Assembly: GCA_002205965.3 (NCBI GenBank)
Contig: NADL03000763.1
Coordinates: 620,001-684,000 of the forward strand
Reading direction: 5' to 3'
Length of the DNA: 64,000 bases
From: Kappaphycus alvarezii
Taxonomy: Eukaryota > Rhodophyta > Florideophyceae > Gigartinales > Solieriaceae
How positions within the stretch are numbered: position 1 is the first letter of the stretch; each line of letters opens with the position of its first letter. The notes under the pieces were generated by a model. It ran no database searches, was not told the DNA's origin, and saw nothing but the letters and a program-made list of their open reading frames with translations. Positions 15,295 through 60,142 of the stretch are shown here, one piece after another. The position numbers and the translations under genes were made by a program.

Positions 15295-16382
15295 AATTGT
15301 CTCAAAGCTCGGGACAAGTTTTCTGAACGAAACGTTTCATGTGGATCTGAAATACATTACAGTACTTCTGCAACTGGTCAAGGAACCCTGACAGTTCCTG
15401 AAAAACTAGACCCATCGGAGGAGGTGTCCAGAAAATTCTTATGTTGGGAGTATGATGTGTCGCAGTACAGTATACTAACCACCAGCACCAACAATCACCG
15501 TCTCCATTATGCCACCGTCGACGTATGCGGCGACCAATCTGTTGATCTCGCCCGCCCGTGTCCTCTCCGTCCCCGTAGCTTCCGTTCCTGATCTCGTAGG
15601 CTTTGCCAGAGGGAGCCCTGACCTTGGCAGCTGCCGAAGCCATCTTCGCTGACTTAACCCGTCGTTCTGACCCACGCAGCAACTGGGAAGAGGGCATCTC
15701 CGCCCGCGTTGGGCGCTTCAAACCCTCTGCCCCCGCACCAGATTCCTCCAAACTACTCTCAAAGCAATAATTGCCATTGGACTCGCCCCCTACGCCGAGC
15801 CTTACAGCGCAATAAAGCCGCAGAGCCACGCTTAGAACTCCCTCCTGGCGGCTTCCGACACTGCCGGCCGCATCATCCCCTCCCACGGTTTCCTCCCCTG
15901 TTTCGACCGACGAATCTACGTGGTCATCCTCAAACCCGCTCTCGCCCAGTTCTCGCACAAAGTTGCTCACCTCCACCACTCTTTCAGCTAAACTCTCTGT
16001 CCGCCGCCGTGCAGCCCACGACCAGGACTTCAAGAATCCCTCTCCCTCTAAGGAAGCACTGCTCACCTCCGCGACTCAAGGCGCGACTGCGACCGCAATC
16101 TCTCCCACCCTCCTACCCCCCCATCAAAAGATCGCCCCGCCCTCCCTCACAATCCTCGAAAATCCCGACCGCTTCCTGTTCCGTCTCCTCTAGCGTTCAG
16201 GGCGAGAAACATCCCGGATCTATTCTTTAGCTCTCGACTCGTTGGGACCGCCATCGGTGCCCTGAGGACTTAGGAGGTGTCGGGAAATCTCTACGAATAG
16301 GTTAACAGCCAAATTTTTAATTTTTTTTTAAAATGGCTCTGGTTCAATGGAAAATCTGACTCACCTCCACCCCGCTGAATGG
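15295..16382 (+). repeat. Left arm of a ~1 kb inverted repeat (partner 26172-27175)
   Basis: The reverse complement of 26172-27175 aligns along this whole stretch. Matches run from the outer AATTGTCTCAAAG, through CTTCTGCAACTGGTCAAGG, to the inner CCATCGGTGCCC and TCTACGAATAG. The two arms share a broken reading frame pointing inward (plus strand here, minus strand in the right arm). Shared peptide blocks are LLPAASD.AG.IIPS, FLPCFDRR, KPALAQFSH, PPTPPSKDRPA and a common end GTAIGALRT..VSGNLYE. The shared frame has stops in both arms. The arms could be long terminal inverted repeats of one element or two opposite copies of one repeat family. Confidence 0.8.
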
Positions 16383-24319: not shown

Positions 24320-25459
24320 TCACATATCTCCACTTGACTGGTGCCCAATGCGCAAACTTGATGAGCTACGGAACTGGACGTCCATTCTTGCTCTCCGCTT
24401 GCGGTGATAATTTTCCTGTGCCTTCCTTCGTTTCTCGGCTGACGACACCCCAATATCGAAAACTCTGTTGCACATGCGGCAATAAACATCAATATCGTCA
24501 ATCCTCAAAGTATACATGCGAACGTGCAGGTTTGCCAAACGACGCAAACCTTAAAATATCTGTCGTAACTAGATTCCCCCCACCTCCATTTCGATGATAT
24601 TACCGTCCACAGTCCGCAAAATCGTCCGAAATAATTCTCGACCAAGACCCTATCCGAGGAGATGCGGTCGTTGCTATATTGCCCAGTTCTTTTTCGACAT
24701 CCATTCTGTTTCTTTTTTTGGCAGCTCTCCTCGCACAAATTCTGCAATCCCCTGATTCCCCTTGTCGGCTAAAACCACGCATGAGCAAGAAAAATCTTCC
24801 GACAACTCCACACTGTCTTCCCTACCTTGCTCTCCTCTCGTCGTTTCCAGAATGTTGGCGTAAAACTGGCGGTTGTCTTGAAAAATAGCTATATAGGGTG
24901 TAGAACCTGGATAGTGCTGCGAACAACCAATTGAAAGCACATTCGGCAAGACTAACACCTCTGTCTTGTATCCATAAAGTTCGTGCTTTCCGCTAAAATA
25001 GACTTTTCCCTCCTGCATAGAACCGCTCAGCCTACATGCCTGTTGAAACGTCACATCGGTTGCATATCTCGCGCAGCTGTAATTTTTGAAAAGAGTTTTT
25101 TTGTTCCGCAATTTTTCCATAGAGTACTGCACACCAACAGCAAAAACTGCTGCCTCAAACATGAAGTCGCTTACCATGCGAACGAACTTATTGACCATTG
25201 CCTCGAATGATGGCCCTTTCCGTCCAAAAACACGAGCCAGAAAATCCCATTGGCCTCCATTCTTTGCAACAGCCACCATCATGAAGAAGAAATCCTTGCC
25301 ACTCACATCACTTTTCCCTCCTCTCCCAGTATTGTAGTGCGTTGAACCATAATCTGAAAAAAGTCCCCATACGTATTCAAATTCAGTGGGGTTAAAATTA
25401 GTCATCTTTAGCACTGCCTCGCTTTCCCCCACTTCATAGAAGCGGTCAAAAATGGGCAT
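24320..25459 (-). pseudogene. DDE_Tnp_4-type (Harbinger/ISL2EU-like) transposase, nearly whole but frameshifted
   Basis: A 261-residue open frame (24674-25459, minus) carries an N-terminal region MPIFDRFYEVGESEAVLKMT. The catalytic core reads GKVYFSGKHELYGYKTEVLV (first Asp/His region), LPNVLSIGCSQHYPGSTPYI and CSCVVLADKGNQGIAEFVRG (second Asp). The third part continues in other frames at 24505-24747: SSDRVLVENYFGRFCGLWTV with the late Glu (VENYFGR), then the C-terminal tail at 24320-24547 with DDIDVYCRMCNRVFD. Frame changes occur near 24700 and 24540. The ADKGNQG segment replaces the more usual ADKGYQG. Part of a DNA transposon located between the inverted repeat arms. Confidence 0.8.
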
Positions 25460-26171: not shown

Positions 26172-27175
26172 TTTAGCGGGGTGGGGGTGGGATCATACTT
26201 TCCATTGCACCAGAGCCATATTAGAAAATCATTAAAAATTCGGCTGTTAAGCTATTCGTAGAGGTTTCCCGACACTCCGCAAGTCCTAAGGGCACCGATG
26301 GCAGTCCCAATGAGTCGAAAGCTAAGGAAACGATGTGGTACGTTTCCCGCTCTGAGCGCTAGAAGAGACCGAATAGGAGGCGGTCGAGAGTTTCAAGGAT
26401 TGTGTGGGACCGCAGGGCGGTCCTTAGATGGGGGGGTGGGAGGGCATGAGAGATTGCGGACGCAGATGCGCCTCGAGGCGCGGAGGTGAGCAGTGCTCCA
26501 GCAGAAGGAGAGTTTTTCTTGGGGGCTTAGTCGTGGGCGGCGCGGCAGCGGACAGAGAGTTCAGCTGGAAGTGTGGTGGAGGTGAGCGGCGATGTGCGAG
26601 AACTGGGCGAGAGCGGGTTTGTGGTTGAACACCTATGTTCGTCGGTCGAAACAGGGGAGGAAAACGTAGGAGGGGATGATGCAGCCGGCAGCGTCGGAAG
26701 CCGCCAGGAGGGAGTTCTAGGCGTGGCCGTACGACTGGAACGCGCTGTAAGCAAACGGGAAGGGCGATGCGCTCTTCTCGTTTGTGGTGTGGGTCAGAAC
26801 GACGGGCTAAGTCAGCCAAGATGGCTTCGGCAGCCGCCAAGGTCAGGGCTCCTTCTGGAGCAGGGGCGATGGTGCGAGATCGGGAACGGAAGCGACGGGG
26901 CGGAGACCAAGCGGACGTTCGAGATCACCAGATCGGTCGCCGCATATATCGTCGGTGGCATAGTGGAGACAGTGAGTGTTGGGGCTGGTGGTGAGTATAC
27001 TGTACTGTGGCATATCATACTCCCAACATAAAATTTTTTGGACCCCCCCTCCGATGATGTCTAGTTTTCCAGGAACTTTCAGGGTTCCTTGACCAGTTGC
27101 AGAAGTACTGTAAAGTATTTCAGTCCCATATAAGCTGTTTCTCTCAGGAAACTTGTCATGAACTTTGAGACAATT
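26172..27175 (-). repeat. Right arm of the ~1 kb inverted repeat (partner 15295-16382)
   Basis: Reverse-complement match to the left arm along its length, including the shared inward-pointing broken reading frame (minus strand here). The arm begins inside with TCCATTGCACCAGAGCC, passes a purine-rich stretch, and ends outside at GTCTCAAAG/AATT. By eye the two arms are well above 70% identical with scattered small indels, so they are older than a recent insertion but clearly homologous. Confidence 0.8.
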
Positions 27176-27543
27176 AATTTTTACAAAATATAAACTTCCT
27201 TGGGGGAACTAACCTTTTGCGAAGAAGTAGCCTCTGAAATAGCCAAATTTAATGTGCCATTAAAATTAAATATCAAGCGACGAATCAAGTACTGCTACAA
27301 ACCAACGACCATCAAAATAATAGTCCAGTGAAGCACCCTCATATGGGCAGCTTAGTACTTTTTTCGAGGAAAATTTTTTAAATCTATAAAACATTGCTTT
27401 TTGAGGGCTCATCCGGCCGTGACACCCCCCAGAGTGGTCTTTTTCGGAGGTAGCCAGGCGTTACTCTCAGAACTATTTCAGGGTGTAAGGAGTTCTCAGT
27501 GACTGGCCTGAAGTAGTGAAACTTTCATTGCTTGTAACGGTTC

Positions 27544-27713
27544 TATGTCGCCAATGCGACATACTCCGCTACTAAAAATTTTGTTAATTTCAGCGTTGGC
27601 AATAATGGCCATACTCTTCGTCCCAACTATCCGGATCTTCAACGCAGGGCATCACACCCCAACCCCAATGTTGTCGGCTGCTCGACACGACTTGTGTTGA
27701 AACATCAACACTA
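27544..27713. repeat. Left palindrome set of copy A
   Basis: Three 20-bp units of the form TGTGTC-N8-GACACA: 27544-27563 (TATGTC-GCCAATGC-GACATA), 27670-27689 (GTTGTC-GGCTGCTC-GACACG) and 27694-27713 (TGTGTT-GAAACATC-AACACT). The 6+8+6 geometry is exact in each. Confidence 0.7.
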
Positions 27714-28053
27714 TTGTGTGCTCGCTACCGAATCAGCTCCACAACCTGCAGAATTCGTCAAGGTGAGGTACCAACGCTACACAGACGAAATATGGGTCTC
27801 CTGAGCGTTACCAGTTCACCAAATCTCCCGTATCACACGGAATTGATGAAAAGTTTTGAAACTCCTGTTATCTTTTGCGGATCCCGTAATATTTTCTCCA
27901 TGGAAGGGCTATGAGCGCTTGTTTTGGCTCACCAACGTTCCTTTCTCTCAACTTCTATTTTTGGTTCTGGATTTTCATGGGGAACGCTTCCCCAAGACCA
28001 TCGAAAGTCAGTTTGACGACGCATGACTGCGTCGTTTTCGTGATGTACGGTGA

Positions 28054-29521
28054 TCATCTGCAGAGCAAAAGCTGGTCAAGAATAAGAAAGATGTCGTGTA
28101 TAACTATGACTATTTACGTATTGCCGGGTATCATGTGATGGTGTCCTCTTTGCTAAAAATTGGTGAGGAGGGGACGATGATGAGTTCCTCTTTAAAAGAA
28201 GTGCAGAAGATTATTGAAGAACTCAAGACGCAGTTCAGGAATCGTCAGCGGAGAGCTGTACCGAGGAGGGAACAGCAAAAGAGGTGTGGTCGCGTACTGT
28301 GAATTCAACGTGCCGCGCTTTCGTCTCGTCTGTATTATGTGGCTCACACGTTGCTGTCGGGCGGGACGCTTTACCTGGGGTTTGACTTACCAGTGCTCCA
28401 TGTGATATGTACTTTTGGATGCTCCATATTTACAAGGAGCATTGCCTCATGGGCCGCATCTGTCAGAATTGATTTGACGGGGGGATTTGGCAAGGAGCTT
28501 CTTACTTACTGCATCCGAGAACTGTCTATTGACTTGTCCGATTTTTATCCAATATTTCTGGTAGATGACACTGTTAGGATTGGGACAACTCCTGCATGTT
28601 TTGGGGATTTGGAGGAGGACTCTGGTGTTATTGCAGATGAAATCGTAGGCTTTTGCATGGCAGTTATGGAGTTGGTACTTCTCAATGAGTTCTCTACTTC
28701 CAACCTTGAGTTAGAACATCTCTCCGACCAAATCTTTGAGAAAGGAGGCTTGCCTCAGGGCTCTAAAGAATGGAAGAAATTCAGGTATCAGGCTAAGTTT
28801 GTTGACATATCCGCGAGTAGCGGTTTGTTGTCAGCTTTTAGGGTTTTGTCGACACGTTTGGGCTGTTTAGTGTCTCCTGAAGCAGCCCTGAGCCAACTTC
28901 GTATTGAATCCAGCGAGCTCCTTGCCCAGATGCAAGAGGGTGTGGATATTGACGTGCTCCATTCGAAGATGAAGGGAAAGAGCAAGTCAGTGTTTTGGAA
29001 TACTACGTACGCCGTATATACGGAACGTGGGAAAGATTACTGTCATTTACAAAGCCACTCAGCAGTTGCAAGAAAACTTTGGTCGCAGATGGAGAGACTA
29101 GCATCTTATTTTGGAGAGATGTACGGAGGTGTCCCGGAGACCCTTGCGGCAATAACTGGAACAGATGCGGCCAGATGACGGCATGTCATCCCCAGGGGAG
29201 GCTCTGATAGAGTTGCCAGAGTCAGTGGAAGCGGTCTACCCAGTCCTGAAGAGCGTGGCGAATTTTTCCCACCGCCTTCTCGAAGATATGTTTGCACATA
29301 TGACTATGTACCCCCTTCATCACCTCGTGCATCACCACAAAAAAAAGGCCGAGCAATCCGCATTTCCGACTGCAATGTCGTCGGCAATGCGCTTTTTATC
29401 AAGAAGCTATGCAGAGCATAGCAGGAAGCGCAAAAAGGATGTGTCGGAAGACGTTACTGGAGGTAACACTACACCCTTACGGCTCGAGAATTGCTCTCGG
29501 AGCCGCAGAAACCGCGGGTGA
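28054..29521 (+). pseudogene. Gene 1 of the element, copy A: unknown family, broken
   Basis: A long plus-strand frame with an in-frame TGA at 28300 and a frameshift near 29165, ending about 29521. It aligns with copy B gene 1 (35586-37122) throughout, for example YHVMVSSLLKIGEEGTMMSS against YHVMLSSLLKVGEDGSMLSI, FDLPVLHVICTFGCSIFT against FDLPVLHVMTTLGCFVFT, and NTTYAVYTERGKDYCHLQSH against NNTYTAYTESGPVYCGLLGH. The protein is mainly helical, with a basic patch RNRQRRAVPRREQQKR about a fifth of the way in and a basic tail (HSRKRKKDV). I recognise no family. The preserved shared residues despite strong DNA divergence indicate past selection on the protein. Confidence 0.65.
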
Positions 29522-29804
29522 AACGGCGGAGGCACGGGAAGCTGTGATGAGAATGACGGGGAAGGCGGAAGTGGTGATGGTGTACGGAGTCGGGGTCGAA
29601 ATGGACAACATAATCATAAGGGTTATGGTGGATCCTCTGGAAGTGAGGAGGAAGGTACTCATAGCAGTTGTGACAATAGCGGTGGGGAAATGAGGGAGGA
29701 GGAAGGGCGTGATGAGGATGGTAGTGGGGTAACGTTTAGGGAGGGGTTGCACGATAAAAGTAAGGTGGATGGAGCCTGTATCCACTCCTGAAGCGATGAA
29801 TGAT

Positions 29805-30045
29805 ATGGTGGAGTGTAGAGGGGGGAGAGTGGAGTGTATGGGGATAGGGTGGAGTGTAAGAGAGCTTGTGGGGGAGGGGTGGAGTGCGGGAGGGAGGATG
29901 GAATGCACGGGGACCTGGTGTGCAGGGGGGCGTGCAGAGTGTTGTGTGTGCATGGAAGCGGGTGTGCAGGGGAACATGGACGGGGAGTAGAATTCAGTGG
30001 GAGCGGGTGAAGTGCAGGGGACGGAGGAGTGTAGTGGTGGGTGGG
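29805..30045 (+). repeat. G-rich strand-biased tract with GTGGAGTG repeats
   Basis: Plus strand is strongly G over C, with imperfect repeats of GGTGGAGTGTAG at about 29807, 29827, 29847 and 29877 and many GGGG runs. It sits between gene 1 and the middle palindrome array of copy A. There is no equivalent in copy B. Confidence 0.6.
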
Positions 30046-30258
30046 AACTTCTTGGAAATTGCGTTCATGTCTATTTGGATGCGGCGCTGTGTTGCAGCAA
30101 ATTCCGGCCGGAACACCAATCCATGCCCTACCCAGGGAAGGGTGGCATGGAATTGGTGGTGTTGACAATGATACAGAACCGGATACAGTCTAATGATGCC
30201 TCGGAAGTCTGAGACTTGATATAAAATAAAGTATTGTGCTGTGAATTTTTGCAGTATT

Positions 30259-30692
30259 TGTGTTGGTGCCAAGACACATAATGAGGACGATTTTGTGTGG
30301 GATCCATGACACAGTTTTTTTGTGTTATCACCTCGACAAAAGAGTTTTTATCGATACCTTGACACAAAGTGTGTATCGGGACCTCTACGCAAAAATACGT
30401 GTCGGGACCTCGACACAAAAGATTGTGTCGACAGCTTGACATAAATTTTGTCTCATAACTTTGGGAAATTGACTGTTCCCAATCAGATATCATACAGTAC
30501 AGTAGTGAGGGCATCAACTTTGAGCATGTACCACGCCATCTGATCGGGGAACTCACAGGCAAATATGCATGCTCGTGCTGTTTCACTACGACAAAATTTG
30601 AGTTGGATAAACGAACCATTTAATTGTGTCGCAGTGCCAATACAGTGTGTTTTCTAGTGCAGAAACATGTTTTTTGTCTTCATATCGACAAA
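30259..30692. repeat. Middle palindrome array of copy A
   Basis: Seven 20-bp units start at 30259, 30294, 30321, 30347, 30372, 30398 and 30424, a period near 26 bp. Further weaker units start at about 30448, 30576, 30625 and 30673. Examples: TGTGTT-GGTGCCAA-GACACA, CGTGTC-GGGACCTC-GACACA, TGTGTC-GACAGCTT-GACATA. Spacer length is 8 in the clear units. Confidence 0.8.
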
Positions 30693-31072
30693 TTTTCTAT
30701 CTCGTTGTCCAAAATCTTTAATTAAGAGCGCTGTCGAATTTTGCTTGGGGAATACTGTCCTGTACAGACTTTTCTTGTGTTGATACCAACCTGCTCATCC
30801 AAGAGCGCTCCATTCCTTTCCTAAACCCTCTGTGGATCAGCACTACATCATACAGTACCCCGCCCGCCCCTCCCCCCCGCAGATCCGGACCCACCCTGCT
30901 CCAGATACTACCCACCTCTCCTACAATTCTTTGTGTCCCACCTTCTTCCTCTCCTCACCTTCAATAAACGTTTCTGCTCCCCAACTCCTCTCTGCTTCGG
31001 CTCCTACTATTGCTCCTCCCCGCTCCCGTACCTGCTCCTGGCCCCACTGCTCCCCGCTCTGCCCGTATTGCA

Positions 31073-31600
31073 ATGTTGTCCGATACACCACAACCTGCGC
31101 TTAACGAGGCATTCGAGAAGCACGTCATCACTCAGCTCGCTCTCCGCCTTAATTTTTCGAACGCAGAGGCCGTCACTAGAAAATCTCTCTTCAAAAGTTA
31201 CGTTAGACACAGGATTATGCTCAAAAGCAAACACGAACGGAAGAACCACTCCCTTTGAGATCGGAATAGAATGTCAAAGGGATTCATAACTAAAGAAGAT
31301 CGAATGCAGGCAGTTCATAACTCCAACATGGCAGTACAAAGATTGAAGGAAAAGACCGGAAACACCTCCTTTTCCGGAGGCATTACTGCGCAAAGACGCC
31401 CGGGGTTTGTCAGTGCTCCTCGCGATGATTTCGGAAAATATATCTGCGGAAATTCTAGACTCCCCTGCCTTGAAATAATAGCCCTGTGTACCTTGACTTG
31501 TGCCTATTACTCCCGTCCTCCGCACCCGACATGTGTGCATAAATACCTGGACTCTACCTGCTGGGAGTATGACGATATTGGACGAGCCACCAATGTGTAA
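31073..31600 (+). pseudogene. Gene 2 of the element, copy A: small unknown protein, one premature stop
   Basis: From ATG 31073 (MLSDTPQPALNEAFEKH) the frame runs to 31600 with a single in-frame TGA at 31256-31258, giving about 175 codons. It matches copy B at both ends: start MLS..P.P.L..AF, then PGFVSAPRDDFGKYICGN against PGFVTVYRDDFGDAFCGN, then YYSRPP about 52 bases later in both. The conserved Cys and RDDFG residues suggest a compact fold. Family unknown. Lies directly after the middle palindrome array and converges on the recombinase. Confidence 0.55.
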
Positions 31601-31689
31601 TGCTTCAATTGCACCCCGGATCTGAGCGATGATGACCACTAGACTAGCTGCATTGCGATAGAGGGGCTTTCTCTTCACTATGAGCCAGC

Positions 31690-32930
31690 CTTAGAGCCCT
31701 TATCAGCTGTTCCAGCTCCGCCATGGGCACCACATCCAGTTTGTACAACTCAATAAATGACTACTCCCCTATCCTACCGTATTCCTCTGCAATATCTTTT
31801 CTGTGGTAATTTTTTGATTTCACTGTCGTAGTCCGTACTTTCTCGGGCCAATCTCGGAGTGGGATGACCAGGTTCCGGGATGGGCTTCTTTCCTCCCAGT
31901 GCAATATTACCTCTCGCAAAGTGAAAACTCGCGGTATTGAGGTACATTTGCGGACGATTTCCATATCTGCTCAATCCCCCCTACACTATCCACTTTGTAT
32001 AATCCCTCTTTCGACAACGCTCCCAGTATTGCTTATAAATCGCGGCAATGTCTGCGACTCCAGCTACCTCACAATTACAGAAACCTTGTTCGATTCACTT
32101 GATACGTACAATTTGATACCCTGCTCAAGTTCTTTAAAACCGTCCTGACCTCCTCCCTAAATCCAGACAGCTCCATTCCCAGCTCCTCGTTCGTTTCCAA
32201 AGGCGCTTTCATGTCCAATTCATTACCATTCGTAAATAAATAGTGACTGTAGCTCTCCTTATATTTCCAGGTCTCCTCCAACAAATACCGCATAATGGTA
32301 TTCACTTCATCACCGGAACCCCACTCCCCCACCTCTTAACCACATGCAAGGGCCAACGATTTCGCCCGTTAAGAAACCTGTGCTGTGCCCCACCACGGCA
32401 GAAACAGTGCATCGTAAACTTCTCGAGCTCCTCTCCCTCCATGCTGGGGGGAATTATATCGCATCTGTCCACCCAAATATTGATCGTCCTCAGAAAATTC
32501 TGAGGGCTCATCATTTCTCCCACCGATAACTCTTTTACGAGGCCGTCCGCATGGAGGAAAAGCGGATCCTCTTTCAAGAGCTCCCGGCTCAAAACAGCTC
32601 GGTAAGCTCTCACCCAACGATGCAGCTGTATATATGCACACGTACAAGGCTCATCGCGCATCTGATAAAAGCCGTACAGTTGTCCCTCTCTTGACCTCTC
32701 GAATTTCGGTTGCCTCAACGTTACTGCCGCATGCTATACTCTCTGTTCATTCATCACTTGCAACTTGACACCACCCCATCACAACTACACCAGCTCGTCT
32801 ATGCGCAACCACAACGAAAACAAACAGCTGTTGCGCCCATCACATATGCCGATTGCAGCGAATCCTCACCTACACTCCGCGCGTATTGCAGCATTTCATC
32901 CATGTATTTGTACTACCGACAAAAATTGTG
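31690..32930 (-). pseudogene. Tyrosine recombinase of copy A, broken and with a mutated catalytic motif
   Basis: Minus-strand blocks of a tyrosine recombinase. The N-terminal piece KYMDEMLQYARSVGEDSLQS is near 32905-32845. Box I WLRIDELV (about 32815-32792) supplies the first catalytic Arg. DPLFLHADGLVKELSVGEMM follows. Box II is FTMHCFCRGGAQHRF (about 32415-32371), where the expected H-x-x-R reads H-x-x-C. Then RWPLHVVKRWG, a frameshift, and DEVNTIMRYLLEE (about 32310-32270) with the catalytic Tyr. The C-terminal domain has FTLREVILHWEE and LVIPLRDWPEKVRTTTV (31761-31974). The order and the HCFRRGGAQ-type Box II match Crypton-like recombinases. Stops follow Box I, and the N-terminal domain seen in copy B is missing. 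Confidence 0.75.
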
Positions 32931-33008
32931 TCTGCATCTCGAGACATCCGCCGAAGTGGTCAGATGCAAACCGACTGTAGATTACAATGGAACTGTAATG
33001 CTTTTCAT

Positions 33009-33337
33009 TGTGTCGCTATGGCAACACAGGTATCGCAATAGACTAGTGAGTTTCAGAGAATATTCGTGTATTTTGTCGCACTATTGTTACAGATGTTACC
33101 CCTCCGACACATTGCCGGTGGCTTTCTACAAACGCCACATTTGTCGCATCCTCGACACATTTATGTAGGATTTCTGCATATTGGTTCGTCTTTGTCGCTT
33201 GTGTGACACACTACTGGCGGCCTACTGGAAAAGAAGAGTTATGTGTCGTATCCCCGACACATTTATGGCTGATTTTTGCATATAGGTATGTATATTCTGT
33301 GTCGCTTGTGCAACACACATGTTACGCCCCCGACACA
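33009..33337. repeat. Right palindrome array of copy A
   Basis: Eight 20-bp units start at 33009, 33072, 33092, 33140, 33191, 33242, 33298 and 33318. Examples: TGTGTC-GCTATGGC-AACACA, TTTGTC-GCATCCTC-GACACA, TGTGTC-GTATCCCC-GACACA. Spacing is about 51 bp with two close pairs 20 bp apart. The array occupies the place where the recombinase N-terminus lies in copy B. Confidence 0.8.
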
Positions 33338-35181
33338 TTACGCTTTCTTTATTGGATTATTGAATTACTATGCTGGTCGAACATTAAAAGAGATTTATAT
33401 ATGCAACTTTCCGTTCTTTTTAAATCATATGAAACATATCCGTTGTTTCGTGTTGTTTTTGGATGAGAAATATAAACAGTACACGCCCTTTTTGTGACAG
33501 CACGGCTTTCAATTAGGGGGGATGGAAACAGAAGATTCTCTTGCTACTGTCGCTTCGGGGGAGGAGGAAGGAGAGACGATAGATGGGTTTTTTGTTGTTG
33601 GTATGCATCTTTTAATTGTTCTCTCACGAAACAAAATACCTGTTGGTTTTGCTTGAGTTCTGAATTCAAACACGATCACAATGCCATACTTAGTGCAAGC
33701 ACCAATATTACACTTTTATTCATTTACTCATATATTTTATCCATAGTTAGTGCTATATGTGTGCCCAGGCACCCATTGAAAAGAACCAGTAACATGAATT
33801 CTTAATGAATTTTGCAGTAGATCCATATGCAGTCATAAGGGATGTTTCAACAACTCTTCACGTTCGGAACGTAGCGGTGAGAGCGCTGGAAAACTTCTGA
33901 AGAGTGCGAGCAGTTCTTGTGCAAAGGCACACTATCCAGCAGCTGTCATTTCCAATGCAACGTGCCATATAATCGGCTTTACGCCGGTATTTTGAGGACT
34001 GTGCTATGTGAATCTGGGTATAAGTCTTTGCCCTAGGATATTTCTGGAAGAAACCGACTAAATTTTTCAATAGTAAAGCATTCAAACTTCCTCCCCGTTT
34101 TACTTAGTATTCTATTTCTATTGTACGAGCAATTTTCTGTGTTGGATTGTTCAGGAGAGCATTAAGGGGTCAAACACTATGTTTACTCAAGTATATCTTT
34201 TAATTTATACTCAAAAGAGATAAAACATAAGTAGACCTACTCTATGTTATGTTACTTCCAACGCATCGGCATAGCACAATTGCTACTAACATTATTTATA
34301 TTATTAGCTCCGGCTTACCCATTCTGTAGCTCCAACCTATCAGATCCTAGCACTATAATCTCTAAATCCTTGCAAAATTCACAATACTCATGAACAGGCC
34401 TTCCCGGGCACTTGCAAGGGGCATCAGTTACGGCGAAGCCGCACCCCTGTGCTCTGAAGCCGCAATTGATGCCCATTGTACCCTCCTTACGTCAGGCCTT
34501 CATGTGTTGTTTCAATTTTCATTTTAATTATTGCATTCCTGGGTGGGTTTGAGCTGTGTAAAATCATCAATAACACAGTAGTTTCTACACTGAAAAAAAA
34601 TCGCGAGTGTATGTCGTGGAAATGCAGAAAATGCATGTTCTACATTCGGCCCCTTTGAACGTCCTAAAAGGTGACCTGAAACGACCATGTAAGATGGAAA
34701 TTCTTAAAAAAATACCTACTCGCGTGACACCTTCAGGCCTTTTCTCGCCTGACCTCGCGAAATCCCTTTAGATTTTAATTGCGACTGTACAAACGACCAT
34801 AGGAAGTTATGTCACACTATGGGACACAAAATATAGCCAAATAATTGCAAGCTTGCCGCTCGCAAGCTCACCGTCGGCTTATTCTGTGCCAAATAGTGCG
34901 AAATGGCCTACTATGGCCGTTTATACACGAGACGTACCAGTTTCGCCGCCTTAAAAAACCGTGACGGCCCCCAGCCGGTTGTTTTAGGGGGTATTTCAGG
35001 GTTACGGTTTGAAACATTTCAAGCCGGTCCAAAACTTTTTTAAATTTTTAAAACTTTTGGAAATTTTGGAAAGCCGTTTTGAGAGAGGGGGCCAGCAAGG
35101 ACCGATTGAGAAACGGGGCATATGGCGCCAACTATGCACAATCTAAGGAACACTACCAACCCCTGCTAGTTTAACAGAAAC
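33338..35181. other. Interval between the two element copies
   Basis: No gene recognised. It contains a short acidic open frame after an ATG near 33521 (METEDSLATVASGEEE) with no further support, and an imperfect inverted repeat GGGCATCAGTT/AATTGATGCCC at 34419-34474 enclosing two copies of GAAGCCGCA. The last 400 bases have several runs of A/T and G and a hairpin-like GCAAGC/GCTTGC stretch near 34847. Confidence 0.4.
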
Positions 35182-35265
35182 TGTGTTACGGGACCGACAC
35201 ACTGCAACTGAGTTGTGTCGCATGATTGACACAACGCATGCAAAGTGTGTCGTCCAGGCGACACA
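35182..35265. repeat. Left palindrome array of copy B
   Basis: Three 20-bp units start at 35182, 35214 and 35246, exactly 32 bp apart: TGTGTT-ACGGGACC-GACACA, TGTGTC-GCATGATT-GACACA, TGTGTC-GTCCAGGC-GACACA. Confidence 0.85.
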
Positions 35266-35585
35266 TTCCGTTATAAATTTCAAATTTTCATTTTAACTAC
35301 TGCAACGGGTCCTTGTACCATATGCCTATTTCGCCCTGTGCCCTTCCCAAGCGACCGCAACCCCCCACAGTGTGAACCATTCAGACTATCCGACAACTCA
35401 AGCCCGATCACCCCCCAAGCCTCTCACCAAGTTCGTGGTCGGCCGTGCGACACAACCCACAACCCTTCAAGAGTCTCTGCGAATTGAAAGCTCTAGTGGC
35501 CAGGACAGCAGTGCTGGTACTGCTGAAACTACTACTGCGCCCAGAAGCGACACTGGGGGGCCTACTGCGACCCCCGACAACGGAG

Positions 35586-37122
35586 ATGGCGTGCGAAGAT
35601 GCTTCGCAAATCAGGGTGCTGTCGCACCACCCAATGCAAACAAGCAGCTTTTCTGTTTGTCAGTTTTGCCCTTCTCCGAGCTCTTTTCTGTATTCGACTG
35701 CGCAGGGGATCCGATTCGCAGGTGTCGTGAAGGATAAATTCGAGAAGGCGCTGCTGGAGAACTTCAGCGACATGGAAGGAGCGACGGATGAAGACCGGCT
35801 GAGGAAGATCAAGAAAGAAACTCGTTTTAACTACCATGACATGCGTTACGTCGAGTATCATGTCATGTTGTCGTCACTTTTGAAGGTTGGCGAGGATGGG
35901 TCAATGTTGAGCATTCTTCTTGCTGGCGTCGGAGCCGATTTTGAAGAGTTGCAAACCAATTTCAGGCAGCGCCAGAGACGAAGTGCACAGAAACCAGAGC
36001 AACAGAAGAGGATTCGGTGTTCCATGGATGAACACCTCAAGAAGGTTGCTGCTCGACTGCAGAGTGTTGCACACATTCTCTTGTCTATTGTATGTCTCTC
36101 CCCAGCGTTTGACCTTCCAGTTCTTCATGTCATGACAACCCTGGGCTGCTTCGTATTTACGGAGTGCATAGAAGACTGGGCAAAATCCGTGGATGTTGAT
36201 TTCTCGGGAAGGTATGGCAGGAAACTTTTGCAAGACTGTGTCCGGGAATTTGATATGGATTTAGTGAAAAGCAACCCCATTTTTTTGCGTAGTGACAGCT
36301 TAGGTAGTAATGGCGTTTCAATAAGAACTCGCTGGAATATGGACACTGCGGCCACCATTGTCAATGAGGTCGTCGGTTTCTTGACATCTGTAACAGACCT
36401 GGTTGTGCCTTCTGATTTATTTTATTCCATGAATAATGTCATGTATTTCGCTACTGTAGTTTACAGGGAGAATTTCCTGGGTTTAATGAAGCAAGCAGTG
36501 AAAGGATTTCAGTAAGAGGGCACAGTTCGTCGATGTGTCTGGGACCACAGGATTGTCTAGTTCAATCATGAATGTCTTGGAGCGTGTGTTACCCCTTTCC
36601 AGTGCGATTTTGGCCACGACCCAAGCGCAGCACGTTTTCGCGGAGATGAATTCGCAGCAACAGGAGGTGGAGGAAATTTCGAAGCTCCATTCCAAGTTGC
36701 GAGGGAACGCCAACAAGACATTGTTTAGGAACAATACATACACTGCCTACACGGAGAGTGGACCTGTGTATTGTGGGCTGTTAGGGCATGCGGGACATGC
36801 CAGAAAGCTATGGCGTCAAATGGCGGTGCTTGCAGATTGCCTCCGCGAGAAATATGACCAGGACTTCCAAAATCTCCTCCCGGTAGAGAAGGAAGAGGGA
36901 AGTTCTGGACCTGAAAAAACCGCGTTGATGACGATGATGGAAGCAATGGACAAGGTGGCTCCAGTGCTTCGTACTTTGCACAAGTTCTGCAGAGGGTTCA
37001 TTGAGGACCTCTTCACACATATTGCTTTCTATGCCATGTATGATTGTATCCACTATCTGACTTGTGTCACTACCCAAACACAATTCCCCGATTTGTTTCA
37101 CCCCTCCAACAAGATTTCTTGA
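35586..37122 (+). pseudogene. Gene 1 of the element, copy B: unknown family, one frameshift
   Basis: From ATG 35586 (MACEDASQIRVL) a frame runs to about 36511, where one extra base shifts it. The correct continuation (KRAQFVDVSGTTGLSS) passes into the frame that ends at 37122. Total about 510 codons. Features: helical N-terminus with DEDRLRKIKKETR, conserved YHDMRYVEYHVMLSSLLKVG, a basic region RQRQRRSAQKPEQQKRIR, a hydrophobic core FDLPVLHVMTTLGC, and a C-terminal helical region with KVAPVLRTLHKFCRGFIEDL. No known domain is recognised. The true start is uncertain because the frame is open upstream to about 35445. The last codons overlap the first palindrome of the middle array. Confidence 0.65.
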
Positions 37123-37343
37123 CTTGTTTCATCCCCGCAACACAATTCCTTAAGTTGTGCCACCCTCCAACATAATCCCCCGGTTTTTGTCACCCCCCGA
37201 CACAACTCCTGTCACAGACTCAACACAGCTCCACGTTTTGTGTCACCTCCTTAACATATCATGATGCCACCTAAACACAACACAGCATCCTTGTGTCACC
37301 GCCCCGACACATCAAGGCATGTTTGTGTCACCGCCCCGACACA
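37063..37343. repeat. Middle palindrome array of copy B
   Basis: Ten 20-bp units start at 37063, 37094, 37125, 37155, 37185, 37208, 37239, 37260, 37292 and 37324, mostly 30-32 bp apart. Two identical units TGTGTC-ACCGCCCC-GACACA lie at 37292 and 37324. Others are decayed forms such as TGTTTC-ATCCCCGC-AACACA. The spacers are C-rich on the plus strand, so the units share a direction. Confidence 0.85.
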
Positions 37344-37549
37344 AGCTCTGTCGATCCCGTGATTGTTCTCGCCGCACAAATACATCCCTCATTGGTTACA
37401 ATCATTATTACTGTGACTTTCAAAACACTCCTTGCTTTCACATAGGGAGGCTACACACCCAAGCTTTCTCACAGTTCTCTCCCTGCACACATCTATTTTC
37501 ACATCTCTTATCATCCCACTCTCTCCCAATACCTGTTGTTTCTAAAAGT

Positions 37550-38061
37550 ATGCTCAGCAACAGACCTGATCCCTATCTAGATGTAGCTTTCGATCATTTT
37601 GCGCTTGACGAACTAGCGAAGTAGTTGAAAATCTCCAAGAAAAAAGCAACTATAAGAAGGTTGATTTCAGGTGCTATGTTCGAGATTAATTCTTGCTTCG
37701 AAGCGAACACGCAACGAAGAAGTTACGGTGACTGGAAACAATTAGCACAAGGCTTCGTTGGAAGAATAGACAGGTGGAAAACGATGTAACAATCCGTGAG
37801 TGGAAACAGAAACACAAGGGCGGATGTGATCACAATTTAATCTGACCTCAACGACGTCCGGGTTTTGTCACTGTGTACAGGGACGATTTCGGTGACGCCT
37901 TCTGCGGAAACTATTCAATTGGATGTACGTAACTTGCTGGTACAGCATCCGAAGCGTGTTCCTACTATTCCCGTCCCCCTTCACGCCACTTTTTGTTGGC
38001 AGGTATATTGAGTCCTCCACTTGGCGCGACGATGGCGACGGAAACTGTGTGAACATTTTCT
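37550..38061 (+). pseudogene. Gene 2 of the element, copy B: small unknown protein, several stops
   Basis: Starts at ATG 37550 with MLSNRPDPYLDVAFDH, matching the copy A start MLSDTPQPALNEAFEK. A stop follows at 37622, then frameshifted remains. The conserved block PGFVTVYRDDFGDAFCGN lies at 37858-37911 and YYSRPP at about 37962-37979, the same spacing as in copy A. It is more decayed than copy A. The two copies together define a small protein family of unknown role. Confidence 0.5.
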
Positions 38062-38116
38062 GATTCAACTGCGTCCCACATGATGATGAAAATGACCAGG
38101 AAAACACCTCTACAAA

Positions 38117-39792
38117 TTAAGAGCTTGTTTCTGCATTTTCTGTAATCCACTTCTTTGCTCTCATACTCCTTTTCAACTCAGCAATTGGAATATCGTCTGG
38201 ACTGGAGGCATCAATAAACCCACTCTCCCCAAGTCTCTCAAACTTTTCGGCAACGAGTTTTCTATCGTGGTACTTATGCTTTATCGCCGTCGTCCTCACC
38301 TTTTCAGGCCAATCCCTCAGTGGCACAAACAAACTCATTCGGGAGCATCCACGCCTCCAATGCTCTATAATCTCACGCCAGTTCCTTACTCTATGCATGA
38401 ACGTGCATTTGGACGCAATTTGATATACAGTCCCGCTCATCCCAGCCAATTTTCCATCGAAAACGACGATCCCCTGTCCGGTTCCCTTGGACTGACCCCC
38501 TATAGATGACCTTCTAACAATAATTGTTCTGGAAGTTGATTCTTTCCACAGTTCTGACAGGTGGTCCGTCTGTGCTGATATGTGTAAGGTGACCATTCCT
38601 CTTCGAGATCTTCAACAGATTCTATGCTTGACCTTACTTCGAGTTCGTTACCACAGTTAAATAGATAACGCGTGTGGCTCTCCTCGTATTTCCATGTCTC
38701 CTCGAGCAGGTACCTAATTATTGTGTTGACGTCATCCGCACTCTCCCATCCCCCCCCCACTTCACTACATGCAAGTTCTATCTTTTGACGCCCGTAAAGT
38801 TTCTATGCTGGGCGCCCCCACACCGGAAGCAATGCATGGTAAATCTGCCAAATTCTTCCTATGCTCAGGTTTTCGGTATGATGTTGCATCTACTAACCCA
38901 GTAGTTAACAGTTTCCATGAATTTTTGCTGATTCACCTTGGATCAAAAACAAATTTGAGTGACTAATTCATCAGCATGCGGGAACAGCGGATCCCCGCTC
39001 TCGAGTGGTCGGGACAGTAAAGATTGATACTTCTTATCCAATGCCCGAACATGAGTGTATGCATGTATACGCGACTCTATCTATTTCTCGTGCACTGCAT
39101 ATTTCTGCCCGTCTGAGTTCTGTTCAATTTTCCTCCCCGTCAATGTCACCTCGACATATGGAATCCGCTGTTCATTGATTTCCTCAAGTTTTAAATTGTC
39201 CAATTTCAACTGAACAAGTTCATCTATGCGAAGCCAAAACGTAAAGAACAAGAACGCCGCCGCATTTATATACGTGTACTGCAGCGATTGAGCCCCGACG
39301 CGAATCTAATGTCGTTGCATACGTTCCATATACCTACACGTAAAAGGGAGAGCTCTCTTGTAGCCAACCTGTTTTTTCAATCGCTTGTAATGGTTCATTC
39401 ACCACCACCTCCAGTAATTTGACAGGTTTTCCTTCGGTCTTCCCTCTGGGAAATGTTCGAAACTTCCCATCCCTTCTAAATTTCCTTTTGTACACACTCG
39501 CAAGTGCTGATCTAATATTCACAACCTCGCCTGGGTCACATCCGGATTCGATTACACTTGTAATAGAATTATTCCATTATCTTTCCCACAATCGCCTTAC
39601 TGTTTTCTCCGGACCCTTCAGGATCGATACATTCCCCCCATCTTGGAGCTCTTTATCCATACAAAAATCCCTAAAATACTTCCACTTCCGTTCATACAAC
39701 AACTTACTGCTTTCCCGAACAAATGAGAGGATTTTCTTTTCCGCTTGGGCCTTTCGGCACTCTGCGCTCACAACATTCCGCTTCTTTGACAT
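38117..39792 (-). pseudogene. Tyrosine recombinase of copy B, broken
   Basis: The N-terminal domain starts at ATG 39792 (MSKKRNVVSAECRKAQAEKK, SKLLYERKWKYFRDFCMD), then IRSALASVYKRKFRRDGKFR and ESSPFYV, a stop, a degraded segment, Box I FTFWLRIDELVQLKLDNL (about 39250-39195) and VEVTLTGRKIEQ. Box II FTMHCFRCGGAQHR (about 38848-38805) keeps the H-x-x-R. Next HVVKWGGGWESADDVNTI and the catalytic Tyr in IIRYLLEETWKYEES. The C-terminal domain (38117-38596) has VRNWREIIEHWRRG and LFVPLRDWPEKVRTTAIKHK. Order and motifs match Crypton-like recombinases. Stops and frameshifts occur between blocks. It converges on gene 2, with the 3' ends about 55 bases apart. Confidence 0.8.
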
Positions 39793-40311
39793 AACAGAAA
39801 TAGCGTAGACGCGGATGCAAGAAAAAAACCCAATTCAGCACGATGGTCACAGGTCCGAAGATGGATTGGGCTGCCTGAATTTCTGACGCAGAAAGCTCGT
39901 TTCGATGGATCAGCCGGTGGAGGCGAGCAGTGTTATGGAAAAGCGAAAACAGAGAGAAGCGATTGGAAGAAATAATGTTGCAGCGGCGGCTTGAGGGGAA
40001 ATGGTCGAGAGAGAGATGGTTGGGAATGCCAGGGACCTGTATTGTGATAACAACAGAAAACAACGTGCTGCAGGCGCGATAGCCGAGAGAAGGTTTGGGG
40101 TAAGTGGATGCCGGGGAGCGGGCGCGGTAGTCGGTAGAGTAGTGGGGGAGGAAGGGATGCTGGAAGGAGGGAACGTGATGAAGCGGGTGACAGGCGCGGT
40201 GAGGGATGGGAGCGGGGAGAAGCTTGAGGCTAGCCGTGATATTGAGATCAACGAGAAACCGGTCAATTTCGTATTATTGCTGTAATCGCTGTAATTTTGT
40301 AAGGCTATGCC

Positions 40312-40536
40312 TGTGTCACCTTGGCGACACAATATGTCGATGGGGTGACACAATATTTCCCAACAACGACGGATGAAATCATCACTGATCCTGTAATCAG
40401 GGCACTTGTAATTTAATGTTGTAACTCAATACCTATGTCTATGTGTTGATACACATTGTGTCACCATGGTACACTGTATCACCCTACTGACACACTGTGT
40501 CACCCCATCGACACATTGTGTCAGAGCGAGGACACA
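40312..40536. repeat. Right palindrome array of copy B
   Basis: 20-bp units start at 40312, 40333, 40436, 40457, 40475, 40496 and 40517. The period is about 21 bp, so neighbouring units abut or slightly overlap. Examples: TGTGTC-ACCTTGGC-GACACA, TATGTC-GATGGGGT-GACACA, TGTGTC-ACCCCATC-GACACA, TGTGTC-AGAGCGAG-GACACA. Confidence 0.85.
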
Positions 40537-41264
40537 CCCTACTGAAACATGACAGTCACCCTATGGCAAACAAGCCGCTCTTTCGGTTTTACTAGTACCC
40601 TGCAGCTTTCATTTTGTAATGTACTTCGCTGTGTTGTTCTCAGTAATATGAACCATATTGCAAACTACGCTCACAATGTTGAAACGTGTTACATGTCTCC
40701 CGAATGATTTATATTCTTGACCCCACGTCTTCGTTGTAAAGGGTCTTCACAACAGTTATCAATGCTTTACCTCTGTTTTGTTTGACTAGCTCTTTTATTA
40801 AAAAAATATTATTTGCTTCAGAGTATTTCATACTGGGCTACATCGATACAACCTCTTTAATGATGCTGAAACTGTTTTTATGAAACTTCCTGCGAACTTC
40901 ATTTGATCCTTTTAATTAGGTAGCAATTATTAGAAAATTCTGACGAAGGGGAAGAGAGCTGCTTCAAAGCAGCTCACCAGGTAACGCAAATTTCCATTAC
41001 TATCACACCATACTGAATATAGTCTCCATTGTGTTAGTTATGTGGAACCTACAAGTGGATGTACTGTGTAGCTCTATTTAAATGGTCAGGTACATAGATC
41101 TAGCATGTCTGCTTTCATAAAGCCCCCGATGCGCCGGACAACTTTGTATCATTTAGCACTAAGTACTACTTATACGAACAAACAGTAGGAATTCATCAAT
41201 TCGATAGCATCTGAATACAAATAGTCCGCACTAGTAGTGCCTATAACTTATGGTAGGTTTGCTC
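40537..41264. other. AT-rich interval, no gene recognised
   Basis: No open frame or motif of note beyond a decayed palindrome just after the copy B array. Likely spacer DNA. Confidence 0.4.
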
Positions 41265-41322
41265 GGTGTCTACTTCTTAAATCGCATTAGCTACTGCTGA
41301 TGCGATTGAGGAAGTAGACACC
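41265..41322 (+). repeat. 23-bp stem hairpin with a 12-base loop
   Basis: Left arm 41265-41287 and right arm 41300-41322 pair at 21 of 23 positions by Watson-Crick pairing plus one G-T. The loop is 41288-41299. Stem ends: GGTGTCTACTTCTT and its partner ...AAGTAGACACC. Function unknown. It could be a foldback element or part of a hairpin RNA. Confidence 0.7.
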
Positions 41323-41383
41323 AGCAGTGCAGGTTAAATACTGTTGCGTCTGCTTTATGTATACGCATCCTTTGAACGGTGCG

Positions 41384-41433
41384 TCTCCGCGGCAATAGCT
41401 ATCTGCATAGCAATGGCTATGGGGATAGCGGAG
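41384..41433 (+). repeat. Second hairpin (GCTATC/GATAGC stem)
   Basis: An inner 14-bp stem (41398-41411 against 41416-41429, 12 of 14 paired) with a 4-base loop, extended outward by TCTCCGC/GCGGAGA. Lies 60 bases after the first hairpin. Confidence 0.6.
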
Positions 41434-41519
41434 ATAGAAGCACGGAGCTATTAATATTTAAGTTCATTTTATTCGGTTCTCGTAGTTTTCCGCAATAATT
41501 CCAAAAGCCAAGCGAAGAT

Positions 41520-41860
41520 GGTTGTTTTAAAAAGGGGGAAAAATGGTTTTGTTTTACTGCGAGTAATGGAACGGTTGGGAGTCCTCTGTATTTGCTCTCC
41601 AGAATAAAGGGGGAAAATGGTTCTCTGGAATACACTGTATACACAATTTCAAGTTGTAGCCTAAGTGTCGCTCAAGACTCCTTCCAACAAACAACTGGCG
41701 TTATTCTGGACGAGTCTCGCCGCGTGACGAGCGAACAATGTTCGCTGCGCATCAGCAATCGGAACGGCTGCCCGTGCGGCAATGCCATTCGCAACCCGGT
41801 TGGCGAAGTCTGGTTTGGCTTACTGCGAGTAATGGAAAGGTTGTTTTAAAAAGTAATGTG
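41520..41860 (+). repeat. Region with short direct repeats
   Basis: GTTGTTTTAAAAAG occurs near 41522 and 41841, and TTACTGCGAGTAATGGAA near 41556 and 41821. A perfect 15-base palindrome GCGAACAATGTTCGC lies at 41731-41745. This suggests a small non-autonomous element or duplicated segment. No gene. Confidence 0.5.
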
Positions 41861-42063
41861 CTGGAGAATGTGCGATCAATGGCCCTGAAAATGCAGCTTT
41901 CATTTTCGCGGCCTCTAAACAACAGCAGATGAGCAAGTAAACAACCGTGACGGCTTCCTTTTATTGAAATCCTTCAAAAATCGCTGCTGTCGGCGCGAGC
42001 AAAGCGCGCGAGGGTGACACGGAGCTTACCAATCAGCGTTTTTTATACAAACAGCCAAAAAAG

Positions 42064-42129
42064 GCCATGTCACGGTAAAAGACAAAAGGCAAGCTTGCGA
42101 GCCTTCGTAACACCTTACCGTAACATGGC
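42064..42129 (+). repeat. Hairpin with 15-bp arms
   Basis: Arms 42064-42078 and 42115-42129 pair at 14 of 15 positions (GCCATGTCACGGTAA with TTACCGTAACATGGC), with an inner AAGGC/GCCTT stem. Just downstream, at 42155-42175, is a TGTACAGTACTGTACGGTACA palindromic cluster. Confidence 0.55.
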
Positions 42130-42175
42130 GCATTATGGTTGTTTGTGCATCTAATGTACAGTACTGTACGGTACA

Positions 42176-57682: not shown

Positions 57683-57884
57683 TTTCGTCGCGTGTAGAAC
57701 GCGGTTTATGTGCATGAAACGCATGTCAGTGCACAGCGAGGGCAAGTCACTGGACTTGTGCCACGAAGCGCACGTGGCGCACGTGTCCTACGTGGGCCCT
57801 GCTATATTCCACTGCTTGCTGTGGCCTTATAGTGGTCGCGAGGCAGACCCGGCTGCTGTGAGTCGCGGGTATGCCTCTCTCTTT
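57683..57884 (+). repeat. Left 202-bp direct repeat of the DIRS-like element
   Basis: Starts TTTCGTCGCGTGTAGA and ends TATGCCTCTCTCTTT. Aligns without gaps to 60634-60835 with roughly 25 differences, giving an old insertion. Confidence 0.85.
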
Positions 57885-57986
57885 CGAGAGTCCCCAGACC
57901 TAGTCCGGTGTTAGGTCCATTAATAACGACCAAAAGTTATCCGTTCCTTTGCGTTCTCGAGAACCGCAACAGAAATCACAAAAACC

Positions 57987-58700
57987 ATGGTTAGTTCGTC
58001 GTCGTCTATCAACCCAGTCCTCAACTCGAAGAATCTAGCCGAATACCTCCTGGACAAGTGCAAGCAGGTCGCGAAGGGCAAGAAAATTGTCGAGGCCGGC
58101 ATCACCGTCGACTAGATGCAACCGTATGCAAATATCGCCGAGCGTGAGGACCGTGAGCAGCGGTTCAGTTTGAAGCGCTACCCGTTTCAACCTGGCGATG
58201 CCACTCCCGCCTTCATCGGCGGCTTCTTCGACAACGAGGAGTGGTATATGCGCCGCAAACTCGCCAAGTAGCAGAGCATGTACTCGGTGGTCGAGTATGA
58301 GGCGAAGTACATCAAAGCTTCCGGCTGCTTGTCTGTGCTCTACAATGTGGCGTACGAGCTGCGTCAAGAGGCCTTTGAGTCGGGGAATAAGGAAGAGGCT
58401 GAGAAGTTCGATGCCTGGGCCTACGTCACCATCCGCTACTCGTTGCGCGTCCTCGGTCTCCGCGCAGAGTTCTACCGTATTGCGGCCAAGGACCCAGTGT
58501 ATGCCAAGCTCTTCCTCCTGTCGCTCGAGCGACGCAGCGAGACGGCGATGGCGGACGACCTCGACGACAAGATGGCTATCCTGGAGTCGCACATCTCCTC
58601 TAAGATGTTCGAGGTGGTGGCCACCGTCAAAGCAAGCAACGCGACGGGCGTGCAGGGAGTGCCGGCAAGAAAGGTGGTGCTGTCGATTACAATTAGTCTG
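57987..58700 (+). pseudogene. Gag-like first gene of the DIRS-like element
   Basis: From ATG 57987 (MVSSSSSINPVLNSKNLAEY) one frame runs to about 58700 with in-frame TAG codons at 58113 and 58269. It contains a mixed-charge helical domain (EYEAKYIKASGCLSVLYNVA, YELRQEAFESGNKEEAEKF, YSLRVLGLRAEFYRIA). The frame is lost near 58700, where the reverse-transcriptase protein begins in another frame. Gag identity is from position and composition only. Confidence 0.5.
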
Positions 58701-58708
58701 CGGGGCCA

Positions 58709-60060: not shown

Positions 60061-60142
60061 GACAATTACTATGGAGGCAAACAAGGTGCATGTGCAAAGC
60101 GATGCGATGACGGCCCGGCTGTGATACTGGAAGTGCCGTCGT

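What the first reader, a model, noticed from the sequence alone, without database searches (positions are those of the whole stretch)
27544..40536. Two diverged copies of an undescribed three-gene tyrosine-recombinase element
Copies A (27544-33337) and B (35182-40536) share the same order: an unknown plus-strand gene (~500 codons), an unknown small plus-strand gene, and a convergent Crypton-like tyrosine recombinase on the minus strand. All three proteins align between copies while the DNA is strongly diverged by eye, so selection once kept all three. Ordinary Cryptons are described with a single recombinase gene; two extra conserved genes plus ordered site arrays would make a new element type.
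Basis: partly seen in the sequence, partly recalled or inferred. Interest (0 to 1): 0.92.

Follow-up and report, generated by a model that had tools for sequence, protein, structure and literature searches.

The report
Three-gene Crypton-like mobile element family
This stretch holds two old, broken copies, joined head to tail, of a mobile DNA element that carries three genes and sets of repeated mirror-image DNA sites, and many more copies with the same gene order lie elsewhere in the same genome, so it looks like a real element family that extends the known 'Crypton' type of jumping gene.

Summary
Observation confirmed; interpretation largely right. Both copies carry gene1 (+), a small gene (+) and a convergent tyrosine recombinase, YR (-); all three align between copies (217/574, 71/174, 189/405 residues identical). 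The host genome (336 Mb, unnamed) holds at least 88 loci with these genes: 32 complete gene1>small><YR sets and two tandem pairs (duplicates of each other); one locus, with an inverted duplication, departs from this order. A palindrome, TGTGTC-N8-GACACA, clusters at three places, upstream of each gene, in 10 of 10 copies examined (left cluster only 1-3 sites). Copy comparison gives the ends: 7.2-8.5 kb, no terminal inverted repeats seen, AATGT exactly at both ends in 6 of 12 copies, as in Cryptons. A (27390-34935) and B (34931-42157) form one head-to-tail tandem sharing a terminal pentamer. The small protein ends in a zinc-finger-like pattern; gene1 matched nothing in the searches made. All copies examined are decayed. 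Best reading: a Crypton-type YR transposon with two extra genes and its own site system. New variant of a known kind. What the arrays do is inferred.

The parts
27390..34935 (.). Element copy A, whole
   Evidence: Ends from comparison with C655 (four aligned pieces, 6.2 kb in all, 74-85% identical) and, for the tips, by eye; right end shared with the left end of B
34931..42157 (.). Element copy B, whole
   Evidence: Left and right ends match those of C37, C467, C552, C676, C771
34931..34935 (.). Shared terminal pentamer (GACGT) at the A/B head-to-tail junction
   Evidence: Sequence; same junction form in the duplicate locus C508
42153..42157 (.). Right terminal pentamer AATGT of B
27544..27563 (.). 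Left site of A (one degraded site)
27610..29398 (+). gene1 of A (decayed), unknown family
30259..30692 (.). Middle site array of A
31073..31600 (+). Small gene of A (175 codons, one in-frame TGA)
31606..32912 (-). Tyrosine recombinase of A, N-terminal ~150 residues not found
32927..33337 (.). Right site array of A
35182..35265 (.). Left site array of B (3 sites, 32-bp spacing)
35366..37120 (+). gene1 of B (decayed)
37063..37343 (.). Middle site array of B (about 31-32-bp spacing)
37550..38096 (+). Small gene of B (decayed)
38117..39790 (-). Tyrosine recombinase of B (decayed; first R, H, second R and Y positions kept)
40312..40536 (.). Right site array of B (21-bp spacing within groups)

Best explanation
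A and B are decayed copies of a Crypton-type DNA transposon, 7.2-8.5 kb long, that encodes a tyrosine recombinase (YR) with a GCR1_C-like C-terminus, a large protein of unknown fold (gene1) and a ~188-residue protein ending in a zinc-finger-like motif. Shown: the recurrent three-gene unit, its ends, a short terminal direct repeat, no terminal inverted repeat in the ends inspected, palindrome sites upstream of each gene, and a head-to-tail tandem sharing one pentamer. Inferred: the YR recombines the two terminal pentamers, releases a circle and reinserts it at a short matching sequence, sometimes at the end of an existing copy, which made the A-B tandem. Inferred, less sure: an element-encoded dimeric DNA-binding protein (the YR through its GCR1_C-like domain, or the small protein) binds the TGTGTCR-N6-YGACACA sites to control all three genes and/or hold the ends together.
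For: Co-occurrence and fixed order. YR fold: Foldseek's best hits are Cre (E 1.8e-8), then XerA (7.6e-4) and the yeast centromere protein Ndc10 (3.9e-3), with a weak model (pLDDT 59, query TM-scores 0.18-0.24); Pfam Phage_integrase in 3 of 8 family members (best E 0.0029) and GCR1_C in 1 of 8 (E 0.043); invariant H-x-x-R and Y. Ends; the 26 left-end matches other than the query itself all begin within query positions 4-12 (end at 8), and 8 right-end matches besides the query's own stop exactly at the end position. Sites: 203 (at most 2 mismatches) inside 10 copies, and in held flanks only the 3 of B beside A (for C759, C655 and C651 one or both bounds were set by estimate). Exact site 275 times in the genome against 10 for the reversed control; of the 50 places that call listed, 46 lie within 6 kb of element genes, a zone of 0.40% of the genome. 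Tandem junction.
Against: GCR1_C similarity is weak. No intact copy was examined and no excision or circle was seen. The left pentamer varies: NATGT in 13 of 20 left ends, AACGT in 4 (two duplicate pairs), other in 3; exact AATGT at both ends in 6 of the 12 copies with both ends in hand. Within one subfamily the three codon positions diverge about equally, so those copies show neutral decay, not selection. The only tandem seen besides A-B (C508) is a duplicate of it, so tandem insertion was seen once. No empty site was available. gene1 has no relative in the protein collection searched; the small protein was not searched there (cap reached).
Confidence: 0.85

Rival explanations
1. The arrays are maintenance or replication sites (like EBV oriP or the 2-micron STB, both recalled): the element spends time as an episome that gene1 or the small protein partitions, and the YR only integrates and excises it.
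For: Long middle array of mostly 31-bp units, a separate array with 21-bp spacing, and a left cluster; a circle is expected of a YR element; two extra genes need a job.
Against: No replication or partition protein was recognised; each site cluster sits upstream of a gene, which regulation explains; the resemblance to oriP spacing is recalled, not tested.
Confidence: 0.12
2. It is a broken larger element (virus-like or Starship-like) of which only three genes are seen, with gene1 and the small gene as cargo.
For: Unknown genes; about 1.6 kb without recognised genes at the right of each window copy.
Against: Five copies align from end to end, in one or several pieces, at 7.8-8.5 kb with sharp ends; the same three genes recur in order; no viral contig held a relative of the YR or gene1; no DUF3435, capsid or polymerase match in the element proteins scanned.
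Confidence: 0.04
3. Host genes happen to lie beside a Crypton, and duplication of the whole block explains the recurrence.
For: Some loci are duplicated with their flanks (C460/C619, both C767 ends, and the C508 tandem with A-B).
Against: Of 20 left ends read, the 30-base flanks look unrelated by eye except in two duplicate pairs (L071/L072, L074/L076), while similarity begins at about the same base; 34 of 88 loci are complete sets or tandems of them, many of widely differing sequence.
Confidence: 0.02

Closest known systems
CryptonF (fungi, oomycetes; PMC3212892, passages)
   Same: YR with R-H-R-Y residues, GCR1_C-like C-terminus (weak here), no terminal inverted repeats, short terminal direct repeat
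   Different: Two extra genes with no recognised relatives (not C48 peptidase), palindrome sites at three places, 7-8.5 kb length
CryptonS / CryptonF with C48 peptidase (oomycetes; PMC3212892, passages)
   Same: A second protein beside the YR
   Different: Neither extra gene here matched a peptidase in the Pfam scans; three genes and site arrays
Starships (fungi; recalled apart from the start of the abstract of PMC12134995)
   Same: Crypton-related YR carrying further genes
   Different: Small recurrent three-gene set, YR convergent with the other two; no DUF3435 match
DIRS / Ngaro YR retrotransposons
   Same: Tyrosine recombinase for integration
   Different: No reverse transcriptase match among the element proteins scanned
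Yeast 2-micron plasmid (recalled)
   Same: YR plus further genes plus repeated sites
   Different: Integrated, terminal direct repeat, no inverted FRT-like pair shown to act
Red algal plasmids (PMC4814812, passages)
   Same: Possible host group
   Different: The main text holds no occurrence of recombinase or integrase

Membership tests
Crypton | Tyrosine recombinase with R-H-R-Y tetrad | tested here: met
   P0001-P0003, P0005, P0006 have LWLRIDEL, HCFRR and RYLLEE, P0004 LWLRIEEL, HCFRR and KYLLEE; the four positions are kept in B; Cre/XerA/Ndc10 fold hits
Crypton | Short (4-6 bp) direct repeats at the termini | tested here: met
   Exact AATGT at both ends in 6 of 12 copies with both ends in hand, 3-4 of 5 bases agreeing in 5 more, less in A
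Crypton | No terminal inverted repeats | tested here: met
   Left tips of 9 and right tips of 8 copies compared by eye: no TIR at the tips; a short subterminal AAACAACCG inverted motif is present
CryptonF | GCR1_C DNA-binding domain after the YR | tested here: inconclusive
   Pfam GCR1_C in 1 of 8 members, E 0.043
Crypton | Circular intermediate and YR-mediated insertion | not testable with these tools
   Tandem A-B junction with one shared pentamer is consistent
Crypton (usual form) | YR as the only gene | tested here: not met
   Two further genes recur; extra genes are already known in some Cryptons, so this is not a strict exclusion
Starship | DUF3435 captain YR plus cargo | tested here: not met
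   No such Pfam match at E up to 10 in the 8 YR family members
DIRS/Ngaro retrotransposon | Reverse transcriptase within the element | tested here: not met
   No RT match among the element proteins scanned; the whole element was not scanned frame by frame
PHD/RING-type zinc finger (small protein) | Cross-brace Cys/His pattern confirmed by profile or fold | tested here: inconclusive

The most novel reading that the evidence does not exclude
A eukaryotic integrating episome: a Crypton YR joined to its own maintenance system, in which gene1 and a zinc-finger protein bind long 31-bp and 21-bp palindrome arrays (oriP-like) to replicate or hold the circle in the nucleus before the YR integrates it.
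Probability: 0.12. Interest if true: 0.92.

Novelty: new variant of a known kind. Interest (0 to 1): 0.74.

Why it matters
Crypton-derived genes include yeast centromere and transcription proteins (Cbf2/Ndc10, Gcr1; PMC3212892, passages), yet how Cryptons move is, to my knowledge, hardly tested. A family with at least 88 loci, sharp ends, a terminal pentamer, a tandem junction and ordered binding-site arrays gives defined DNA substrates on which excision, integration and site binding can be tested, and suggests that a Crypton can carry a conserved gene set and its own site system.

Tried and rejected
Searches for gene1: Pfam, a PDB profile and two searches of 5.8 billion proteins gave nothing above noise. 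Viral contigs: no relatives of YR or gene1, no match to the tandem site pattern. Prokaryote contigs: no YR relative; the site-pair pattern gave 2 stretches in about 257 Gb, read as chance and not looked into. Palindromes as YR crossover sites: disfavoured because the central bases differ between sites of one copy; against this, the right array of B holds a 34-nt inverted pair with nearly the same centre, so it is not excluded. Copies lacking the small gene and middle array as a subfamily: rejected for L015 and L023, whose deletion breakpoints differ; L027 and L022 were less clear. Small gene on the minus strand: rejected. Selection within one subfamily: not seen. Weak matches to Inhibitor_I67, EF-hand_10, Syntaxin, PEARLI-4, DUF5536, ZapD and Radical_SAM were taken as chance. 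Of the 50 listed exact sites, four are not near element genes: two in C18, one in C21 and C49:310596; C49:310282 holds a left-end match, so that one may belong to an undetected remnant. The protein collection was not searched with the small gene (cap reached).

In print: the paper searches (titles and abstract starts of the listed papers seen) showed no three-gene Crypton with arrays and no red algal Crypton; only open-licence papers are held and the lists were capped. Supplements were not read.
Full report
Observation. Identities are 217/574, 71/174 and 189/405 residues. The small gene is on the plus strand (score 267; minus strand 98; best of 30 shuffles 56). Both copies are broken. In A the YR is recognised only from about residue 151 of its relatives.

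Relatives. A frame-joined YR of B found eight proteins: P0001-P0007 from contigs of 2.4-6.6 kb with no organism given, and P0008 from the fungus Linnemannia zychae. The alignment keeps LWLRIDEL, HCFRRGGAQHRF, VVKWWGGW and NTIIRYLLEE, with small variants in P0004 and a missing N-terminus in P0007. Pfam finds Phage_integrase in 3 of 8 members and GCR1_C in 1 of 8 at E 0.043. A weak AlphaFold model of P0004 (pLDDT 59) hits Cre, XerA and the centromere protein Ndc10 with low TM-scores. A and B are sisters in the YR tree (99/98). gene1 found no protein relative; the small protein was not searched there.

The family in its own genome. The genome held for the window has 336,021,096 bases in 884 contigs. 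YR queries gave 97 and 104 matches, gene1 99, the small gene 72. These are lower bounds: 75 of 259, 78 of 261, 89 of 173 and 93 of 93 candidates were scored. Clustered (tables copied by hand), there are 72 YR, 60 gene1 and 60 small-gene places. Of 72 YR, 53 have the small gene within 7 kb, all downstream and convergent, and 19 have none. From the YR side, the nearest gene1 is downstream and opposite in 42, placed otherwise in 3 and absent in 27; 36 of 72 have both genes, 62 at least one. Of 60 gene1, 44 have a YR downstream and opposite, 16 none; 40 have the small gene downstream on the same strand, 20 none. Of 60 small genes, 53 have a YR, 7 none. Merged into 88 loci: gene1-small-YR 32, small-YR 17, gene1 only 12, YR only 10, gene1-YR 7, gene1-small 4, small only 3, tandem complete sets 2, and 1 with an inverted duplication. 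No other order occurs. Some loci are duplicates with shared flanks (C460/C619; C508 and A-B), so the 88 are not all independent insertions.

Sites. The 29 sites of the window with at most 2 mismatches give TGTGTC(R)-N6-(Y)GACACA with little information outside. In eight further copies and in A and B the sites lie at three places: one to three upstream of gene1 (a single one in C37, C467, C676, C651 and A), a longer array between gene1 and the small gene, and a group upstream of the YR (two in C651, three in C759, more in the others). Inside the ten copies there are 203 sites; held flanks have none except three that belong to B (the outer bounds of C759, C655 and C651 were estimates). Commonest spacings up to 130 bp are 31 (36 of 149), 21 (18) and 32 (11). 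The exact palindrome occurs 275 times in the genome against 10 for the reversed control pattern. Of the 50 places that the call listed (first in contig order), 46 lie within 6 kb of element genes, a zone of 0.40% of the genome.

Ends and tandem. Aligning copies C37, C467, C552, C676 and C771 shows similarity starting and stopping at the same points, giving 7,884, 8,495, 7,800, 7,886 and 7,985 bp. The left end reads AATGTACCATTTTCGCG..., the right end ...GGTTGTTTCTACATGTAATGT. A genome search with one left end gave 27 matches, the 26 others starting at query positions 4-12, where 8 is the end. A search with one right end gave 20 matches; 8 besides the query's own stop exactly at the end position, the rest are shorter, inverted or run a few bases on. 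Of 20 left ends read, 13 have NATGT, 4 AACGT (two duplicate pairs) and 3 other. The right pentamer is AATGT in 11 of 14 ends (C37, C467, C552, C676, C771, B, C586, C590, the second C508 copy, C695, and C470 by eye), GACGT in A and the first C508 copy, GATGT in C655 (A and C655 tips by eye). Exact AATGT at both ends: 6 of 12 copies (C37, C467, C552, C676, C771, C590); C695 and C655 agree at 4 of 5 bases, B, the second C508 copy and C586 at 3 of 5, A less. The two C586 ends lie 10.1 kb apart, so their pairing is less sure. In the window the right end of A and the left end of B share GACGT at 34931-34935, so A and B are a head-to-tail tandem. C508 has the same junction and a closely similar right flank to that of B, so I read it as a duplicate of this locus, not an independent tandem.

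Small protein. The alignment of 17 copies shows a C-terminal C-x2-C-x4-H-x2-C with a further C-x2-C, a cross-brace zinc-finger pattern (reading by eye; decayed in several copies; zf-RING_2 only E 0.21; no PDB match). The N-terminal half looks helical by eye; no fold could be made.

Age and selection. Over the ten pairs of five copies of one subfamily the three codon positions differ about equally (small 0.091/0.106/0.104; YR 0.101/0.107/0.113; gene1 0.136/0.101/0.132; other aligned DNA 0.116), so those copies mostly record neutral decay after insertion. A protein-level constraint shows only between subfamilies, A against B.

Host. Three phycobilisome-family matches, one of them checked against solved structures (best E 1.8e-13, a phycobilisome core component), fit a red alga but do not prove it.

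Interpretation. The anatomy meets the Crypton criteria testable here (YR, short terminal direct repeat, no TIR seen) and adds two genes and an array system. In Cryptons the known extra gene is a C48 peptidase in oomycetes (PMC3212892, passages seen). I therefore call it a new variant of a known kind. Since each site cluster precedes a gene, the simplest reading is shared control by one element-encoded DNA-binding protein, perhaps with a role in bringing the ends together; an episome-maintenance role is possible and less likely.

Noticed in passing
15295-16359 and 26193-27175: Four pairs of inverted repeat arms (105-559 nt, 83-86% complementary) flank about 10 kb, like long terminal inverted repeats of another transposon; an ORF with a weak DDE_Tnp_4 match (E 0.0055, below the curated cut-off) lies inside at 24674-25459.
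   Followed up: partly
57618-61082: Reverse transcriptase ORF (RVT_1, 59017-59478) with diverged repeated stretches on both sides (57.6-58.0 kb against 60.4-61.1 kb).
   Followed up: no
L023 (C695:125.1-129.1 kb): Element copy with an inverted duplication of the YR/right part, a fold-back structure.
   Followed up: partly
L071/L072 (C619/C460), L074/L076 (C767), C614/C824, C809/C812: Pairs of loci with identical or close match scores, the first two pairs seen to share flanks, pointing to segmental or inverted duplication or uncollapsed haplotypes in the assembly.
   Followed up: no
right ends of C467, C552, C676, C771 and others: A hairpin-like inverted repeat (GTCACGGTAAGAGCCGAAGGCC and its complement) lies within about 100 bp of the right end, and AAACAACCG occurs near both ends in opposite orientation; both could be recombinase or accessory sites (by eye).
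   Followed up: no
40326-40359 and 40489-40522: Inside the right array of B, two 34-nt stretches are inverted copies of each other (88% complementary) with nearly the same site centre.
   Followed up: no
L083, L084 (C74:183737, C669:240962): Phycobilisome-family genes; the L084 protein is only distantly similar to solved subunits.
   Followed up: partly
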